Source of the DNA: Nonomuraea rhodomycinica
Lineage (GTDB): Bacteria; Actinomycetota; Actinomycetes; Streptosporangiales; Streptosporangiaceae
DNA: 64,000 nt
Assembly: GCF_013363995.1 (NCBI RefSeq)
Contig: NZ_JABWGO010000007.1
Span: 310,001-374,000, forward strand
Direction: 5' to 3'
The first letter of the stretch is position 1. The number at the start of each line of letters is the position of its first letter. Shown in pieces: positions 6,763-14,371 of the stretch. The position numbers and the translations under genes were made by a program. The notes under the pieces are model-generated. The model ran no database searches and was not told the DNA's origin. It was given only the letters and a program-made list of their open reading frames with translations.

Positions 6763-7953
6763 CTACGCGGACCGCGTCACGACGGCGGCGCCGATCAGCA
6801 GGACGCAGACGCCCGCGATCGCCGCCACCACCGCGGCCACGCCGATCGGCGCCGCCGCGAGCGGCAGCAGCTCGACCACGGCCACCCCGCCCAGCAGCAC
6901 GGCGGGACGGACGACCGGCCGGTCCGCGATCGCCGCGTGGACCAGCCACAGCAGGACGAGGAACACGCCGACCGGGACCGCCACGGCGTAGCAGATCACC
7001 AGGGGCGACGCCGCGACATGGTGCCCGGTCTGCTCCACCGCGACCTCCAGGCCGGCGCCCAGAGCCGCCAGAGCCGCGAACACGCCGTAATGACCGTATC
7101 CCCACCGGAACGACCGGTGGCGGCGGTCGCTGAGCCCCTCGCCCGCCGGCGCGAGGAAGTACAGCCACCACAGGGCGAACAGCAGGACCAGGCCCGAGAC
7201 GGCGATGACCACCAGGGAGCCGCCGGCCTTGGTCGACTCCAGCGCCGCCGTGACCCCGCGGGTCACGGCGAGCACGCTCTCGCCCAGCAGGATGATCGTG
7301 AACAGTCCGTAGCGCTCGGCGATGTGGTGCGGGTGCCACGCGGTGGACCGGGTCCGCTCCGCCCACCACGGCACCATGAGCTCCAGAGCTGCCAGAGCGG
7401 CGAAGGACGGCACCCGGGCGGCCGGAGGCAGGGCGTCCGACTCCGCGAGCACCAGCCGGATCACCCAGCCCACCTGCACGGCCGCGATGCCGGTCGCGTA
7501 ACGCAGCGCGGTGCGCCGGCCCGCCGGATCCTCCACGGCGGCCCGCACCCACTGCGCGACCAGGGCGACCCGCATGATGAGGTAGCCGATCGTGACGACG
7601 CGGTAGTCGGCCTCGGCCGCCGCGGCCGGCACGCCGGCGGCCAGGACCAGCACGCCGCCCATCTGCACCATGGTCAGCAGCCGGTAGGCGACGTCATCGG
7701 TGTCGTACGACGAGGCGAACCAGGTGAAGTTCATCCACGCCCACCAGATCGCGAAGAAGACCTGGAGGAACAGGACGAGCCCGGCCGTCACGTGAGCCGC
7801 GGCGACGTCGTGCGCGAGCTGGGCGGTCGCCGCCGCGACCGCCACCACGAACGTGAGGTCGAACAGCAGCTCGAGCTGGCTGGAGACGCGGTGCGGCTCG
7901 TCGACCGCCCGCGCGCTCATCGGGATGCGGAGCCTGGTGCCCGGCGGTCGCAT
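6763..7953 (-). CDS. LtrA-family membrane protein
   Basis: About 396 residues. The opening EPHRVSSQLELLFDLTFVVAVAA and the following dozen hydrophobic segments, including RYGLFTIILLGESVLAV, are diagnostic of the low-temperature-requirement A (LtrA) family of integral membrane proteins. The molecular role is not established in any organism. Start: the ATG at 7953 has GGAGG 13 bases upstream; a GTG at 7965 is an alternative but has the GGAGG too close. Confidence 0.85.
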   Translation of the reverse strand: MRPPGTRLRIPMSARAVDEPHRVSSQLELLFDLTFVVAVAAATAQLAHDVAAAHVTAGLVLFLQVFFAIWWAWMNFTWFASSYDTDDVAYRLLTMVQMGGVLVLAAGVPAAAAEADYRVVTIGYLIMRVALVAQWVRAAVEDPAGRRTALRYATGIAAVQVGWVIRLVLAESDALPPAARVPSFAALAALELMVPWWAERTRSTAWHPHHIAERYGLFTIILLGESVLAVTRGVTAALESTKAGGSLVVIAVSGLVLLFALWWLYFLAPAGEGLSDRRHRSFRWGYGHYGVFAALAALGAGLEVAVEQTGHHVAASPLVICYAVAVPVGVFLVLLWLVHAAIADRPVVRPAVLLGGVAVVELLPLAAAPIGVAAVVAAIAGVCVLLIGAAVVTRSA

Positions 7954-8027
7954 GGGAGATGACACGCCTCCGACGATATTTCGCCGGAGCCGTCACGGGC
8001 ACAGGGCCCCCGGCAACGGCGGCCGCG

Positions 8028-8984
8028 TCAGCCGGATGAGGCGTCGCGGCCGGCGAGGCGGGCCCGCAGCCGGGCGGGGTCGGGCCAGTGCACGCCGTAC
8101 GCCCAGCCGGCCCGCTCGAACCAGCGGATCAGCCGCGCGCTCGGATCGACCTGCCCCCGCAGCACCCCGTGCCGGGCGCAGGTCGGCTCCATGTGGTGCC
8201 AGTTGTGCCAGCCCTCGCCGAGCGTCAGCAGCGCCACCCACCACACGTTCGACGAACGGTCGCGGGTGCGGAACGGGCGGTCGCCGAAGGTGTGGGCGAC
8301 GGAGTTCACCGACCACGTGACGTGGTGGACCACGGCGTAACGGACCAGCCCGCCCCAGAAGAAGGCCGTCCACGCGCCCGCCCACGACCACGACCACAGC
8401 CCGCCCACGACGGCCGGCAGCGCGAACGACAGCGCGGCGACGGCCGGGTAGGCGGCGTCGAACCGGCGCACGTCCGGGTCGGCCAGCAGGTCGGGCACCC
8501 AGTGCCGGGGGCTGGAGCGCCGGCGCGCGGTGTAGAACCAGCCGACGTGGGCGTGTGCCATGCCGCGCAGCAGGGCCCAGCCGTCGTCGCCGTAACGCCA
8601 CGGCGAGTGCGGGTCGCCCTCGCGGTCGGCGTACTTGTGGTGCCGCCGGTGCTCGGCCGTCCACAGCGTGACCGGACCCTCGACCGCCATGCCGCCCGCC
8701 AGCATGAGCGCGACGCGCAGCGGCCGGCGGCAGCGGAAGGCCCGGTGGGTGAACAGCCGGTGGTAGCCGACGGCTATCCCGAAGATGCTGATCAGGTACA
8801 TCACGACCGCGATGACGACGTCGCGCGGGCCGACGCCCCACCCCCACGCGGCGGGCACGGCGAGCGCCAGCAGCAGCACGGGGAGCACGACGAGGACGAC
8901 CAGGTAGACGGTGCGGCGGCCGGTGGTGACCGTCACCGTCTCCGCCGTGCCCGGGCCCGGCTGGGGGATGGCCGACGAGGTCAC
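8028..8984 (-). CDS. Membrane fatty-acid desaturase (acyl-CoA / stearoyl type)
   Basis: 318 residues, GTG start with GGGAGG five bases upstream. Hydrophobic segments at about 27-72 and 183-225 flank the three histidine boxes of the di-iron desaturase family: HRLFTH (75-80), EHRRHH (111-116) and GEGWHNWHH (256-264). The enzyme inserts a cis double bond into acyl chains at the membrane with O2 and electrons from a ferredoxin or cytochrome. It is divergent from the P450/dioxygenase operon with a 241-base shared regulatory region, so it may supply unsaturated substrate for that pathway (inference). Confidence 0.92.
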   Translation of the reverse strand: MTSSAIPQPGPGTAETVTVTTGRRTVYLVVLVVLPVLLLALAVPAAWGWGVGPRDVVIAVVMYLISIFGIAVGYHRLFTHRAFRCRRPLRVALMLAGGMAVEGPVTLWTAEHRRHHKYADREGDPHSPWRYGDDGWALLRGMAHAHVGWFYTARRRSSPRHWVPDLLADPDVRRFDAAYPAVAALSFALPAVVGGLWSWSWAGAWTAFFWGGLVRYAVVHHVTWSVNSVAHTFGDRPFRTRDRSSNVWWVALLTLGEGWHNWHHMEPTCARHGVLRGQVDPSARLIRWFERAGWAYGVHWPDPARLRARLAGRDASSG

Positions 8985-9165: not shown

Positions 9166-9225
9166 GTGGCTACACAACGTGATGATCTCTTTTCGCTCCG
9201 GCTTCAGACGGAAGGGGCCACTGGC

Positions 9226-10533
9226 ATGGGCGCTGCCGGTCCGACGACCACGGGCGGCTATCTCGACCGGTACGACGAGGCGCTGGCCCGCGACCCGGTG
9301 TCCGCGTTCGGCCTCGTGCGGGAGTGGATGCGCACCGACTGGCGCGACCTGTTCGCCGAGCTGCGCGAGCGGCGCCCCGTCTTCGTCACGCCCGCCTTCA
9401 CGGTGGTGACCCGCTTCGCCGACGTGATGGAGGTGCTCTCCCACGAGTCGGTCTTCTCGGTGCGCGCCTTCGGCCCGCGCCTGGACGCCGCGCTGGGCGG
9501 CCCGTTCATGCTGGGCCGTGACGCCACGGCGATGAACTGGCGCGACCGGGGCCTCATGCAGGTCATGCTCGACCAGCGCGACACGGCCCGGGTGCGCGAG
9601 CTGGCCGGGCGCGTCGCCGACGAGGCGCTCGACGCCGCCTGGCCGCACGGCCGCATCGAGGCCGTCCACGCCCTGTTCCGCCACGTCGCGCTGGAGGTCT
9701 GCGCGACGTACTTCGGCCTCCCCGGCCCCGACCGGCAGACCCTGTCGCGGTGGACGCGGGCGATCGTCACCGACGGCTTCGCCAACTTCGCCGGCGACCC
9801 CGACCTCCAGGCCGCGTCGGTGCAGGCGGGCGCCGACATGACGGCGTACCTGCGCGACCGGCTCGCCGAGCTGCGGGCCGCCCGGCGCGCCGGGGAGCAG
9901 CCGCCCGACCACGTGTTCGCCCGGCTCGCGGGCACCGCCCTGCCCGCCGGGATCGGCGTGGACGACGAGCGCGTCGTGGTCAACATGGCCGGGCTGCCGC
10001 TCGGCTTCGTGGAGAGCGCGCCCGGCGCCATGGCCGAGGCGGTCGAGCAGCTCCTGCTGCGTCCCGAGGTGCTGGCGCGGGCCGTCGAGGCGGCCGCCGA
10101 GCCCGATCCCGCCCGCTTCGACGCCCACGTCTGGGAGGCGCTGCGGTTCAACCCGTTCTTCAAGCTGCTTCCCCGGCTGTGCGAGCGCGACCACGTGCTC
10201 GCCGCCGGCACCCCGCGGGCCACGCTCGTCCCCGCGGGCACGTTCGTGCTCGCCGCCCCGGCCTCGGCCATGTTCGACGAGGACGTGGTGGCCGAGCCCG
10301 ACGCGTTCCGCCTCGACCGGCCCGGCCACCACCACCTGTTCTTCGGTCACGGCCACCACGCCTGCCTCGGCGTCCATCCCGCCAGGGTCGTCATCTGCGA
10401 GGTCGTCCGCCGCCTGCTGCTGCGCCCCGGCGTACGCCTGCTCCCGCCGCCGGAAGGGCGGCTCGTCCGCTCGCACGGGATCTTCCCCGACCGGTTCGTC
10501 CTCGGCCTCGGCGGCGAGGGGGAGCGGGCATGA
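9226..10533 (+). CDS. Cytochrome P450, probably a hydroperoxide-processing type
   Basis: 435 residues from ATG 9226, which has GGAAGGGG eight bases upstream; a GTG at 9166 lacks one. The heme loop FFGHGHHACLGVH gives the thiolate ligand Cys380, and EALR (304-307) is the ExxR motif. The I-helix (about 251-270) reads VVNMAGLPLGFVESA: the usual AGxxT with an acid-Thr pair is missing, Pro258-Leu259 standing in its place. This loss is known in P450s that rearrange fatty-acid hydroperoxides without activating O2 (CYP74, prostacyclin synthase, the P450 half of fungal Ppo enzymes). It overlaps the next gene by ATGA, so it is coupled to a cyclooxygenase-like enzyme; a hydroperoxide isomerase role is inferred. 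Confidence 0.9.
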   Translation: MGAAGPTTTGGYLDRYDEALARDPVSAFGLVREWMRTDWRDLFAELRERRPVFVTPAFTVVTRFADVMEVLSHESVFSVRAFGPRLDAALGGPFMLGRDATAMNWRDRGLMQVMLDQRDTARVRELAGRVADEALDAAWPHGRIEAVHALFRHVALEVCATYFGLPGPDRQTLSRWTRAIVTDGFANFAGDPDLQAASVQAGADMTAYLRDRLAELRAARRAGEQPPDHVFARLAGTALPAGIGVDDERVVVNMAGLPLGFVESAPGAMAEAVEQLLLRPEVLARAVEAAAEPDPARFDAHVWEALRFNPFFKLLPRLCERDHVLAAGTPRATLVPAGTFVLAAPASAMFDEDVVAEPDAFRLDRPGHHHLFFGHGHHACLGVHPARVVICEVVRRLLLRPGVRLLPPPEGRLVRSHGIFPDRFVLGLGGEGERA

Positions 10534-12149
10534 CCAGCGCGCGCGGCATCGCGGTCGACGGGGCCGCCAACCGGCTCAGGTTCCTGGCGCTCACCAACGG
10601 CCGGCCGTTCTGGGACCTGGCGCAGGCCGTCCCGCCGCTCCGGCGGCGCCTCAACGCCTCGTTGATCGACCACGCGGTCCGCGAGATGCCCCCGCGGCCC
10701 GAGCCGCTGAGCACGATGGCCGGCTACACCTCCTGGGCGTCGCTCACCGACCGCACCTACAGCGGCAGGCACCTGCCCCCGCACACCGCGACCGGCGACG
10801 GCCGGCCCACTCCCGAGCGGGCCGCCGAGCTGTTCACCCGCGGCGACGCCATGATCCCCTGCCCGCGCTCCACGGTGCTGTTCGCCTACTTCGCCCAGTG
10901 GTTCACCGACGGCTTCCTGCGCGGCGACGTCAACATCCCGCGCGACCCGCGCAAGAACAGCTCCAACCACCACATCGACCTCAACCAGCTCTACGGCCTG
11001 CGCCCGGACGCGACGGCGGCGCTGCGCGCGTTCGACGGCGGGCTGCTCAAGAGCCAGCTCATCGACGGCGGCGAGTTCCCGCCCCACCTGTGCGAGAACG
11101 GCAAGATCAAGCCGGAGTTCGCGCCGCTGAGCGTGATCCGCTTCGACGAGCTCACCGACGCCCAGCGCGACACCCTGTTCGCCACCGGCAGCGACCGGGG
11201 CAACATCCAGATCGGCTTCACCATGCTCACGGTGCTGTTCCTGCGCGAGCACAACAGGGTGGCCCGGCAGCTCGCCGAGGCCCATCCGCGCTGGGACGAC
11301 GAGCGGCTGTTCCAGACCGCCCGCAACATCCTCATCGTGCTGCTCATCAAGCTGGTGGTCGAGGAGTACATCAACCACATCACCCCGTACCACTTCCGCT
11401 TCACCCTCGACCCGCGGCTGACGACGCTGCTGGCCCGCGCGCCCTGGCACCGCGAGAACTGGGCGTCGGTCGAGTTCAACCTGGTCTACCGCTGGCACGG
11501 CCTGATCCCCTCGCGGCTGTCGGTGGGCGGGCGCGAACTGCCGATGGCCGACACGCTCGTGGGCGGCGCGCTGATCCCCGGACCGGGCCTCGGCCGGCTC
11601 TTCGAGGACGCCTCCCGCCAGCGCGCCGGCCGGATCGGCCTGTTCAACACCGACCCGCTGCTGCGGGAGGTGGACGCGGCCAGCATCGCCGACTCCCGGG
11701 CCCTGGACCTGGCGCCCTACAACAGCTACCGCGAGCACTGCCGCTTCCCCCGGGTGCGCCGCTTCGAGCACGTCTCCGGCGACCGGCGGGTCAGCGGCGC
11801 GCTGCGGGAGCTGTATCGCGGCGTGGACGACCTCGACCTGTACGTGGGGCTGTTCGCCGAGGAGCCCGGATCTCCCGACGCCATCCTGCCGCCGCTCCTC
11901 ACGAAGATCATCGCGATCGACGCGTTCTCCCAGGCGCTGACCAACCCGCTGCTGGCGCCGCGGGTGTTCAACGCCGCCACCTTCTCGCCGACCGGCATGC
12001 GGATCATCGCCACCACCAGGACGCTGTCGGACGTGGTGCGCCGCAACGTGCCCGAGGACCCGCGTCCCCGCTTCGTCAGCATGACCCGCGCCGTCGTCCC
12101 CGGCGCCGCCGCCTCCCGCCCCGGCACGACCCGCGGCGCGCGCCGATGA
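10530..12149 (+). CDS. Cyclooxygenase-like heme fatty-acid dioxygenase (animal peroxidase superfamily)
   Basis: 539 residues. Aligned from memory with mammalian COX: VLFAYFAQWFTDGFL matches the distal heme region, LREHNRV and HPRWDDERLFQTAR match almost exactly, and FNLVYRWHGLIP carries the catalytic Tyr320 (COX Tyr385) and proximal His323 (COX His388); ASRQRAGRIG and NPLLAPRVF follow in order. The EGF and membrane-binding parts are absent. Distal Gln123 (COX Gln203) is kept but the distal peroxidase His207 is Asp127, which should weaken peroxidase activity and leave a fatty-acid hydroperoxide as product. ATGA overlaps on both sides join it to the P450 and the lipase-like gene. Oxylipin synthesis is a strong inference; the substrate is unknown. 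Confidence 0.9.
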   Translation: MTSARGIAVDGAANRLRFLALTNGRPFWDLAQAVPPLRRRLNASLIDHAVREMPPRPEPLSTMAGYTSWASLTDRTYSGRHLPPHTATGDGRPTPERAAELFTRGDAMIPCPRSTVLFAYFAQWFTDGFLRGDVNIPRDPRKNSSNHHIDLNQLYGLRPDATAALRAFDGGLLKSQLIDGGEFPPHLCENGKIKPEFAPLSVIRFDELTDAQRDTLFATGSDRGNIQIGFTMLTVLFLREHNRVARQLAEAHPRWDDERLFQTARNILIVLLIKLVVEEYINHITPYHFRFTLDPRLTTLLARAPWHRENWASVEFNLVYRWHGLIPSRLSVGGRELPMADTLVGGALIPGPGLGRLFEDASRQRAGRIGLFNTDPLLREVDAASIADSRALDLAPYNSYREHCRFPRVRRFEHVSGDRRVSGALRELYRGVDDLDLYVGLFAEEPGSPDAILPPLLTKIIAIDAFSQALTNPLLAPRVFNAATFSPTGMRIIATTRTLSDVVRRNVPEDPRPRFVSMTRAVVPGAAASRPGTTRGARR

Positions 12150-14371
12150 CCGCCGACCTCAACGCGTCCGGCGAGCCGCCGCATGGCCCGGGGGCTGACG
12201 CGGCCGGTCAGGGGGGTGACGCGACCGGTCCGGCCGCGGAGTCGTTGCGGGGGGCGGCGCGTGAGCTGGTCGACATCGGGGTCGTGATCCGCGGGGCGGC
12301 CGTCCACGCGACGGCCGCCCTCACCGACGGCGCCCTGCTCCAGGCCCTGCCGCACGCGCCCTCCCCGGGCTGGCGGACCCAGCGGGCGCTGCTGCGCGCG
12401 ATCACCAACGGCAGGGGCCTCGGGTGGGCGCCCGCGGGCAGCCGCTCCGCCTCCGTGGCCGCCGCGCTGGGCGCGCTCGCGGGCGCGGAGAGCCTGGCCG
12501 TACGCGTCCTGGCCACCTCCTTGCGGCTGCGGGTCGAGGCCGTCGCCCTCGACCACCCGGAGCTGACCGGCGACCCCATGCTCAGCCGGCTCATCGAGGC
12601 GGCCGCGGCGGACCGCGACCTGGAGGCCGTCCGCGCCCTGCGCGCGCTGCTCGGCGACCGCGGCGCCGTACGCGTCCTCAGCCAGCTCGCCCCGGTCTTC
12701 GGCGAGGTGCTCGCCCTGCGGGCGCTGCTCGACGAGAACCCGCTCAACGACGCCACCGCCTGGCTGATCGCCACGGGAACGGGCTACGCCACGGCCGACC
12801 CGGTCACCGGCATGAGCAACCGGGCCGTGGCCGTGCTCGACCGGGGCGAGGGGGCCGCGCGCCGGGTCGAGCCGGCCGAGGCCGAGTCCGCGCGGCTGGC
12901 CACGAAGGGATCCCTGCTCGGCTTCCTCGGCAACCTCAGCGTGATCGGCACCACGGGCCGCGTCCTCATCCAGAGCGTCGAGGGCCCCGACGGGGTGGTG
13001 CGCCACGTCGTCCAGGCGCCCGGCATGCGGGCCGGGCGGCCCGACCACGACTCGCCGCAGGACCTGCTCGGCGCCTTCAGCAGCGCCGTCCTGGCCGCGA
13101 GCCCGTACAGCCGCGCCCTGGCCAAGGCCGTCGCCGACTACGGCTTGCCCGAGGGCGCCGAGGTGGCTCTGATCGGGCACAGCGCGGGGGGCGCGGCCGT
13201 CATGAACCTGGCGCAGGACCCCGGGTTCTGCGCCCGCCACACCGTCACCCACGCCATCGCGGTCGGCGCGCCCGTCGACTTCAAGCGGCCCGCCGACCCG
13301 GACACCTGGGTCGCCAGCGTCACCAACCAGCACGACATCGTCCCCACTCTCGACGGCCAGGGCGCCGGCGGCTGCTTCGACCTGCATCCCGACTGGTACG
13401 TGGTGGACTACTCCGACGCCACCCACCTGTTCCCGCTCTGCCACAGCATCGACCGCTACATCGCCAACATCGCCACCGACCTGCCCGAGGCCCGCGACCA
13501 CATCGACGGGCGCCTCGCGCCGTACCGGGGGCCGGTCGTGCGCTCGCAGGTCTACCGGCTGTTCGACCACCCGCCCGAACCCGAGGGGTTCCCCTTCCTG
13601 ACCGTGCCGACCCACGCGGTGCCCGGTCCGGGCGGCCGGGTGGAGCTGCCGATCCGCTGTCACGACGGCGGCGCGCTCACCGCGTACTTCGCCGCGGACC
13701 CGGCGGTGGCGGCGGCCCTCCTGGAGGGCACCGGGCTCGGCCCCGCCGTGCGGGTCGCCGGCCGTGCCCTCGTCGCCGTCCACGCCGCCTGGAACCGGCG
13801 TACCAGCGTGGGCGTCCACCGCGAGCTCCACGTCGGGGTCGTCGTGCCCGGCCCGTGGCGGGCCCGCGGGCCGCTCGGCTGGTACGACCTGGTGCGCGGG
13901 GCCGACCGGCGGCGTTCGGGCGTCTTCCTGGCCGGCTCCGTGGTGGACACCGCCGTCGTCGCCGCCCTGGCGCCGCGGCTGTGGGGCGGCGAGCCGTCGC
14001 TGCTGCCGCTGGAGTTCGGGCTGGCCAGGGGCGTCGCCCGCATCACCGCCGGGGCGGAGGCTCGCGGCGACGGAGAGCGGCTGCTCGTCCTGGGCGGGCG
14101 GCTCGGCCCCGGGCTGCCGGTGAGCGAGCGCGACCTGGTCGGCTACGCGCGGGCGGCGGGCACGACGCTGCGCTCCTGCGTACGGGCCCGCGGCCGGGCG
14201 CTGCTGCACCCCGCGCCCCGGCTCCGGCTCACTGTGGAGCCCGGATCGGCCCACCCGCTGGCCCGCCTGCTGCGCGAGCTGGGTCTCGACGGCGCCCGCC
14301 CGCTGCTCTGCCTGTCGGCCGCCGCCCGCCGGACCCTGCGTGACGCCGCCGTCCCGGTGCCGACCACCTGA
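12146..14371 (+). CDS. Lipase-like alpha/beta hydrolase with an extra C-terminal domain
   Basis: 741 residues; ATG 12146 overlaps the dioxygenase stop (ATGA). After about 250 mainly helical residues comes an alpha/beta-hydrolase with GHSAGG (Ser346), NQHDIVP (Asp397) and LCHSIDRY (His433) as a plausible triad, the spacing of lipases and esterases. Residues about 480-741 form a separate domain (FPFLTVPTH..., CHDGGALTAYFAADP..., VGVHRELHVGVVVPG) that resembles the acetoacetate-decarboxylase-like fold; this is a weak memory-based match. It may release fatty acid for the dioxygenase or hydrolyse or further process the product. No signal peptide is evident, so action is cytosolic or at the inner membrane face. 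Confidence 0.82.
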   Translation: MTADLNASGEPPHGPGADAAGQGGDATGPAAESLRGAARELVDIGVVIRGAAVHATAALTDGALLQALPHAPSPGWRTQRALLRAITNGRGLGWAPAGSRSASVAAALGALAGAESLAVRVLATSLRLRVEAVALDHPELTGDPMLSRLIEAAAADRDLEAVRALRALLGDRGAVRVLSQLAPVFGEVLALRALLDENPLNDATAWLIATGTGYATADPVTGMSNRAVAVLDRGEGAARRVEPAEAESARLATKGSLLGFLGNLSVIGTTGRVLIQSVEGPDGVVRHVVQAPGMRAGRPDHDSPQDLLGAFSSAVLAASPYSRALAKAVADYGLPEGAEVALIGHSAGGAAVMNLAQDPGFCARHTVTHAIAVGAPVDFKRPADPDTWVASVTNQHDIVPTLDGQGAGGCFDLHPDWYVVDYSDATHLFPLCHSIDRYIANIATDLPEARDHIDGRLAPYRGPVVRSQVYRLFDHPPEPEGFPFLTVPTHAVPGPGGRVELPIRCHDGGALTAYFAADPAVAAALLEGTGLGPAVRVAGRALVAVHAAWNRRTSVGVHRELHVGVVVPGPWRARGPLGWYDLVRGADRRRSGVFLAGSVVDTAVVAALAPRLWGGEPSLLPLEFGLARGVARITAGAEARGDGERLLVLGGRLGPGLPVSERDLVGYARAAGTTLRSCVRARGRALLHPAPRLRLTVEPGSAHPLARLLRELGLDGARPLLCLSAAARRTLRDAAVPVPTT

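What the first reader, a model, noticed from the sequence alone, without database searches (positions are those of the whole stretch)
10530..12149. COX-like protein with Asp in place of the distal peroxidase His
The AQWFTD segment aligns with AQHFTH of mammalian COX, so Gln203 is kept but His207 is Asp127, while the radical Tyr320 and proximal His323 remain. This predicts oxygenase activity with weak peroxidase activity, which would leave a hydroperoxide for the coupled P450.
Basis: partly seen in the sequence, partly recalled or inferred. Interest (0 to 1): 0.72.

Follow-up and report, generated by a model that had tools for sequence, protein, structure and literature searches.

The report
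Bacterial COX-like dioxygenase with distal aspartate
A soil actinomycete carries a relative of the cyclooxygenase enzymes in which a key peroxidase histidine is always an aspartate; it belongs to a bacterial fatty-acid dioxygenase family and is tightly linked to a P450 gene, which suggests a compact bacterial route to oxidised lipids.

Summary
Window 10530-12149 encodes a 539-aa peroxidase/cyclooxygenase-superfamily protein (Pfam E 6e-47; model matches COX-2 at Z 41, 29% identity). Asp127 lies in the column of COX His207, with Gln123, Tyr320 and His323 kept. This is a family hallmark: Asp is invariant in all 68 relatives fetched from genomes and in plasmid-borne ones, and no conserved His replaces it. 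It is also on record: the characterised Nostoc punctiforme 10S-dioxygenase has the same FTDxF motif and matches the window's substrate-site motifs. So "oxygenase that releases a hydroperoxide" is supported by homology. "Weak peroxidase" is unproven: the family keeps the peroxidase-type distal Arg (Arg223) that COX lost, Asp plus Arg is the working pair of DyP peroxidases, and some haem-peroxide chemistry is needed to make the Tyr radical. The P450 link is strong genetically: 60/68 loci have it upstream, mostly overlapping or 1-3 nt apart, usually with a desaturase and a hydrolase/ADC-like protein. Rhizobia have the same pair; Paracoccus, Methylobacterium and Ruegeria have a catalase-related protein instead. 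New variant of a known kind.

The parts
10530..12149 (+). COX-like haem dioxygenase, 539 aa, bacterial 10S-DOX type
   Evidence: Pfam PF03098 E 5.7e-47; COX-2 E 2e-65; AlphaFold model pLDDT 82, VIA-align Z 41.0, 2.3 A over 481 residues to human COX-2
10896..10898 (+). Gln123 codon (COX Gln203)
   Evidence: alignment
10908..10910 (+). Asp127 codon at the column of the distal His207 of COX
   Evidence: alignment; invariant in 68/68 genome loci and in plasmid-borne relatives
11196..11198 (+). Arg223 codon at the column of COX Val291 / catalytic Arg of peroxidases; 63 of 67 Arg, 4 Thr
11487..11489 (+). Tyr320 codon (COX radical Tyr385), invariant
11496..11498 (+). His323 codon (proximal haem ligand, COX His388), invariant
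9166..10533 (+). divergent cytochrome P450 (GTG 9166; ATG 9226 is an alternative start); stop overlaps the COX-like start by 4 nt (ATGA)
   Evidence: Pfam p450 E 2.8e-7; Cys, ExxR Glu and Arg invariant in 61 sequences; I-helix E283-S284 where homologues have Glu-Asn or Glu-Thr
12146..14371 (+). 741-aa protein: alpha/beta-hydrolase-like part with GHSAGG (Ser346) plus C-terminal acetoacetate-decarboxylase-like domain; start overlaps the COX-like stop by 4 nt
   Evidence: sub-threshold Lipase_3 hits in the window protein, just over cut-off in one homologue; C-terminal fold matches ADC, Foldseek E 5.7e-11; conserved downstream in most loci
8028..8984 (-). divergently transcribed fatty-acid desaturase
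   Evidence: Pfam FA_desaturase E 2e-21; beside the P450 in 57 of 68 loci

Best explanation
The protein is a bacterial haem fatty-acid dioxygenase of the Nostoc 10S-DOX type. A peroxide activates the haem, the ferryl haem oxidises Tyr320 to a radical, Tyr320 takes an allylic hydrogen from an unsaturated fatty acid (probably oleate-like), and O2 adds to give a hydroperoxide, which is released. The neighbouring P450, probably made from the same transcript, then rearranges, cleaves or otherwise uses that hydroperoxide. The adjacent desaturase would supply the double bond, and the hydrolase/ADC-like protein would free or finish the lipid. At the distal haem site Asp127, probably with Arg223 and Gln123, takes over enough of His207's acid-base role to allow activation, while sustained reduction of the product hydroperoxide is probably poor. 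Shown here: sequence, columns, fold, conservation and gene order. Inferred: substrate, product, the role of Asp127/Arg223 and the P450 reaction.
For: Radical Tyr and proximal His invariant. Substrate-site motifs equal those printed for Nostoc 10S-DOX: FTDxF, YIxxITP and IxxDAFxQA (PMC13049297 Table 2; window residues 125-129, 280-286, 461-469). COX Arg120 and Ser530 are both Ala; 10S-DOX also has Ala for Ser530. Distal Arg retained. P450 upstream in 60/68 loci; 52 of 57 with a definable start lie -4 to +17 nt from it. Rhizobial plasmids carry an orthologous P450 (39%) directly upstream of the COX-like gene. Three other genera carry a catalase-related protein there, the arrangement known for Nostoc's hydroperoxide lyase.
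Against: No activity data for any actinobacterial member. COX-like genes in Frankia, Solirubrobacter, Verrucomicrobia and the Betaproteobacterium have no P450 or catalase-related neighbour that I could detect, so a partner is not obligatory. The P450 keeps the I-helix acid (Glu) and, in the window, a Ser at the alcohol position, so an ordinary O2-using monooxygenase is not excluded.
Confidence: 0.62

Rival explanations
1. Competent peroxidase by a different route: Asp127 deprotonates the peroxide and Arg223 assists heterolysis, as the Asp/Arg pair does in dye-decolorizing peroxidases, so the enzyme reduces its hydroperoxide or H2O2 well and the P450 acts on the alcohol.
For: Asp127 invariant and Arg223 in 63/67; Arg aligns with the catalytic Arg of peroxidases; distal Asp deprotonates H2O2 in KpDyP (PMC6153280).
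Against: Four members have Thr, and distant relatives Asn or His, at the Arg site, so Arg is not strictly required; the Nostoc relative with the same Asp yields a hydroperoxide (PMC13049297).
Confidence: 0.2
2. The oxygenase and P450 act on an unrelated, non-fatty-acid substrate of a specialised-metabolite pathway; the P450 is a normal O2/NADPH monooxygenase.
For: The P450's nearest solved relatives are ordinary bacterial P450s; the I-helix Glu is kept and the next residue is Ser/Thr in part of the family.
Against: Desaturase and lipase-like neighbours conserved as a set; substrate-site motifs of a fatty-acid dioxygenase.
Confidence: 0.15
3. A true bacterial cyclooxygenase that makes a prostaglandin-like endoperoxide which the P450 isomerises, as prostacyclin or thromboxane synthase does.
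For: Overall closeness to COX-2 in sequence and fold and a P450 partner.
Against: Arg120, Val523, Gly526 and Ser530 are replaced (A49, T458, I461, A465) and the motifs are those of 10S-DOX; arachidonate is not expected in actinomycetes (general knowledge).
Confidence: 0.03

Closest known systems
Nostoc punctiforme linoleate 10S-dioxygenase (10S-DOX, UniProt B2J5P4), as described in PMC13049297
   Same: About the same length (542 vs 539 aa), Asp at the distal His column (FTDSF vs FTDGF), central motif YIxxITP and terminal motif IxxDAFxQA, radical Tyr; works in tandem with a separately encoded hydroperoxide-using haem protein.
   Different: Partner here is a P450, not a catalase-related lyase; the COX Tyr504 position is Tyr here but Phe in 10S-DOX; product position unknown. 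The full 10S-DOX sequence was not at hand; only the printed motifs were compared.
Animal cyclooxygenases (PGHS-1/2)
   Same: Fold (Z 41), Gln203, Tyr348, Tyr385, Trp387, His388.
   Different: Asp for His207, Arg for Val291, Ala for Arg120 and Ser530.
Fungal dioxygenase-P450 fusions (linoleate diol, allene oxide and epoxy alcohol synthases)
   Same: COX-like dioxygenase coupled to a P450.
   Different: Two separate, abutting genes here instead of one fused protein; fungal dioxygenases keep the distal His.
Dye-decolorizing peroxidases
   Same: Distal Asp and Arg as the predicted peroxide-handling pair (a works-like comparison only).
   Different: Unrelated fold; no Tyr-radical oxygenase chemistry (general knowledge).

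Membership tests
Peroxidase-cyclooxygenase superfamily (PF03098) | Pfam model above cut-off | tested here: met
   160.9 bits against 25
Peroxidase-cyclooxygenase superfamily (PF03098) | Proximal haem-ligand His | tested here: met
   His323 = COX His388, invariant
Peroxidase-cyclooxygenase superfamily (PF03098) | Distal catalytic His (typical, but absent in the recognised member 10S-DOX) | tested here: not met
   Asp127 in every member seen; F143tdsF in 10S-DOX
Bacterial 10S-dioxygenase (Nostoc type) | F-T-D-x-F at the distal helix | tested here: met
   F125-T-D-G-F129 against F143tdsF
Bacterial 10S-dioxygenase (Nostoc type) | Central and terminal substrate-site motifs | tested here: met
   Y280-I-x-x-I-T-P and I461-x-x-D-A-F-x-Q-A against Table 2
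Bacterial 10S-dioxygenase (Nostoc type) | Forms a 10S-hydroperoxide | not testable with these tools
   needs an enzyme assay
Bacterial 10S-dioxygenase (Nostoc type) | Adjacent catalase-related hydroperoxide lyase (of the Nostoc enzyme; may not define the family) | tested here: not met
   P450 in that place in the window; catalase-related partner in Paracoccus, Methylobacterium and Ruegeria
Cyclooxygenase (prostaglandin H synthase) | Arg120 and Ser530 substrate-channel residues | tested here: not met
   Ala49 and Ala465
Cyclooxygenase (prostaglandin H synthase) | Tyr385 radical residue and His388 | tested here: met
   Tyr320, His323
Fungal DOX-P450 fusion (LDS family) | Dioxygenase and P450 fused in one chain | tested here: not met
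   Separate genes overlapping by 4 nt
Hydroperoxide-using (self-sufficient) P450 | Altered I-helix acid-alcohol pair | tested here: inconclusive
   Glu invariant; next residue Ser in 35 and Asn in 26 of 61, Thr in rhizobia

The most novel reading that the evidence does not exclude
The bacterial COX-like clade has swapped the distal His for an Asp that works with the retained peroxidase Arg, giving a DyP-like Asp/Arg peroxide site inside a cyclooxygenase fold, and the actinobacterial members form a dedicated desaturase - dioxygenase - P450 - hydrolase pathway to an undescribed oxylipin.
Probability: 0.3. Interest if true: 0.68.

Novelty: new variant of a known kind. Interest (0 to 1): 0.48.

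Why it matters
In COX the distal His is regarded as the residue that makes peroxide activation possible, yet a whole bacterial clade, including a characterised dioxygenase, does without it. The clade makes it directly testable what minimal distal chemistry a Tyr-radical dioxygenase needs. The cassette also looks like the bacterial, unfused counterpart of COX plus prostacyclin/thromboxane synthase and of fungal dioxygenase-P450 fusions, and points to an oxylipin pathway in dozens of actinomycete species. My literature search found no description of it (open-access papers only).

Tried and rejected
A replacement distal His: rejected by alignment. A one-off mutation or sequencing error: rejected by invariance. 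A P450 that plainly lacks the acid-alcohol pair: first suspected, but the Glu is invariant and the second residue varies Ser/Asn/Thr, so not claimed. Asp as an adaptation to the P450: rejected, since Asp is equally present where no P450 adjoins. A single origin of the P450 pairing: not shown; the tree places the rhizobial pairs with a catalase-paired Paracoccus protein, though on long branches. Decarboxylase activity for the ADC-like domain: unlikely, as no conserved Lys column exists. A first count of P450-COX spacing that allowed distant start codons was replaced by a stricter one. The original Nostoc 10S-DOX paper and the COX distal-His mutant papers were not held, so their peroxidase numbers are not cited.

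Full report
What was checked. The ORF at 10530-12149 (+) encodes 539 residues with one Pfam domain, An_peroxidase, E 5.7e-47. The window lies in a 9.6 Mb Nonomuraea-type genome in which this is the only PF03098 protein. The best solved relatives are COX-2 chains, E 2e-65.

The column. AQWFTD aligns without gaps to AQHFTH of COX-2: Gln123 = Gln203, Asp127 = His207; Tyr320 = Tyr385; Trp322 = Trp387; His323 = His388. The AlphaFold model (mean pLDDT 82, pTM 0.87) matches human COX-2 with Z 41.0, rmsd 2.3 A over 481 residues, well above alpha-dioxygenases (Z about 28) and myeloperoxidase (Z 25.5), which supports the register of the helix. Coordinates were not exposed, so distances could not be measured.

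Family-wide hallmark. All 68 loci found in the genome collection read AQWFTD, from Streptosporangiaceae and Thermomonosporaceae to Frankia, Solirubrobacter, and Verrucomicrobia, Acidobacteria and Betaproteobacteria MAGs. Relatives found independently on plasmids (Acaryochloris, Paracoccus, Rhizobium, Sinorhizobium, Methylobacterium, Ruegeria; 34-45% identical) and in two more actinobacterial loci also have Asp. In contrast, other superfamily members met in these searches keep the His: GQFLNHD in L017 and IQFQVHD in L020. His is therefore probably ancestral and Asp derived in the bacterial COX-like clade (inference).

No substitute His. Invariant His residues of the broad set (147, 241, 283, 323) are all His in COX as well; His81 is conserved only in part of the clade. 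The finding's stated refuter was tested by alignment and did not occur.

Arg223. The family has Arg at the position of COX Val291 in 63 of 67 members (Thr in 4), 14 residues before the L/F-REHN motif, as in the L017 peroxidase and L020. The superfamily review lists a catalytic Arg in an R-x-x-E motif on the distal side (PMC4420034). Thus the clade lacks the His that COX kept and retains the Arg that COX lost. In KpDyP the distal Asp is responsible for deprotonating H2O2, next to an Arg (PMC6153280). That the same pair does this here is inference.

Known relative. Oliw (PMC13049297) describes the Nostoc punctiforme 10S-DOX: 542 residues, about 31% identical to COX, F143-t-d-s-F in place of F205-t-h-q-F, a terminal motif with I483GxDA487FxQ490A and a central motif Y305IxxIT310P. 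The window protein has F125-T-D-G-F129, Y280-I-N-H-I-T285-P and I461-A-I-D464-A465-F-S-Q468-A. The Nostoc enzyme oxidises oleate and linoleate to 10S-hydroperoxides, and a separate catalase-related lyase uses the linoleate product. [quoted passage not shown] So the Asp is not new to science; what is new is its invariance across this large bacterial clade and the P450 cassette, and it does not by itself settle the peroxidase question.

Gene neighbourhood. The P450 stop and COX-like start overlap in ATGA (10530-10533), as do the COX-like stop and the next start (12146-12149). The P450 is upstream in 60 of 68 loci, the desaturase beside it in 57 and the hydrolase/ADC-like gene in 55, several absences being contig ends. 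Of 57 loci with a definable start, 52 have P450-COX spacing between -4 and +17 nt. Rhizobial plasmids carry a P450 39% identical to the window's directly upstream of their COX-like gene, overlapping it in S. medicae. Paracoccus, Methylobacterium and Ruegeria instead have a catalase-related protein next to it. The recurrent choice between two kinds of haem protein that elsewhere consume fatty-acid hydroperoxides is the strongest indirect evidence that the COX-like enzyme releases one. A tree separates rhizobial from actinobacterial P450-paired proteins, with long branches.

The P450. Cys, ExxR and haem-loop signatures are intact in all 61 sequences; the I-helix Glu283 is invariant and the next residue is Ser (35) or Asn (26), and Thr in rhizobia. 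An Asn near the iron occurs in plant allene oxide synthase, prostacyclin synthase and fungal diol synthases (PMC13049297), but Ser and Thr are compatible with O2 activation, so peroxide use is plausible, not shown.

Third gene and desaturase. The 741-aa product has a conserved GHSAGG with Ser346, Asp397 and His433 invariant in 24 homologues, weak lipase hits, and a C-terminal domain with the acetoacetate decarboxylase fold but no conserved Lys; in Acrocarpospora and some Streptosporangium the hydrolase part stands alone. The genome has six FA_desaturase genes, so unsaturated fatty acids should be available.

Verdict. Observation confirmed; interpretation partly supported; new variant of a known kind.

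Noticed in passing
12146-14371 (+), residues about 485-741: C-terminal acetoacetate-decarboxylase-like domain fused to a hydrolase; no conserved Lys for Schiff-base chemistry in 24 homologues, so probably a non-decarboxylating relative.
   Followed up: partly
L108, L111 (Sinorhizobium medicae and Rhizobium gallicum plasmids): The same P450 / COX-like gene pair on plasmids of nodule bacteria, 39-42% identical to the window's; a possible oxylipin locus in plant symbionts.
   Followed up: partly
L110, L112, L113 (Paracoccus yeei, Methylobacterium currus, Ruegeria plasmids): COX-like gene next to a catalase-related protein, the arrangement reported for Nostoc.
   Followed up: partly
L090, L091, L092, L096 (Solirubrobacter and relatives): COX-like genes with Thr instead of Arg at the Val291 site and no evident P450 or catalase-related neighbour.
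   Followed up: no
window 6763-7965 (-): LtrA-family membrane protein next to the desaturase; found there only in the two closest Nonomuraea loci.
   Followed up: no
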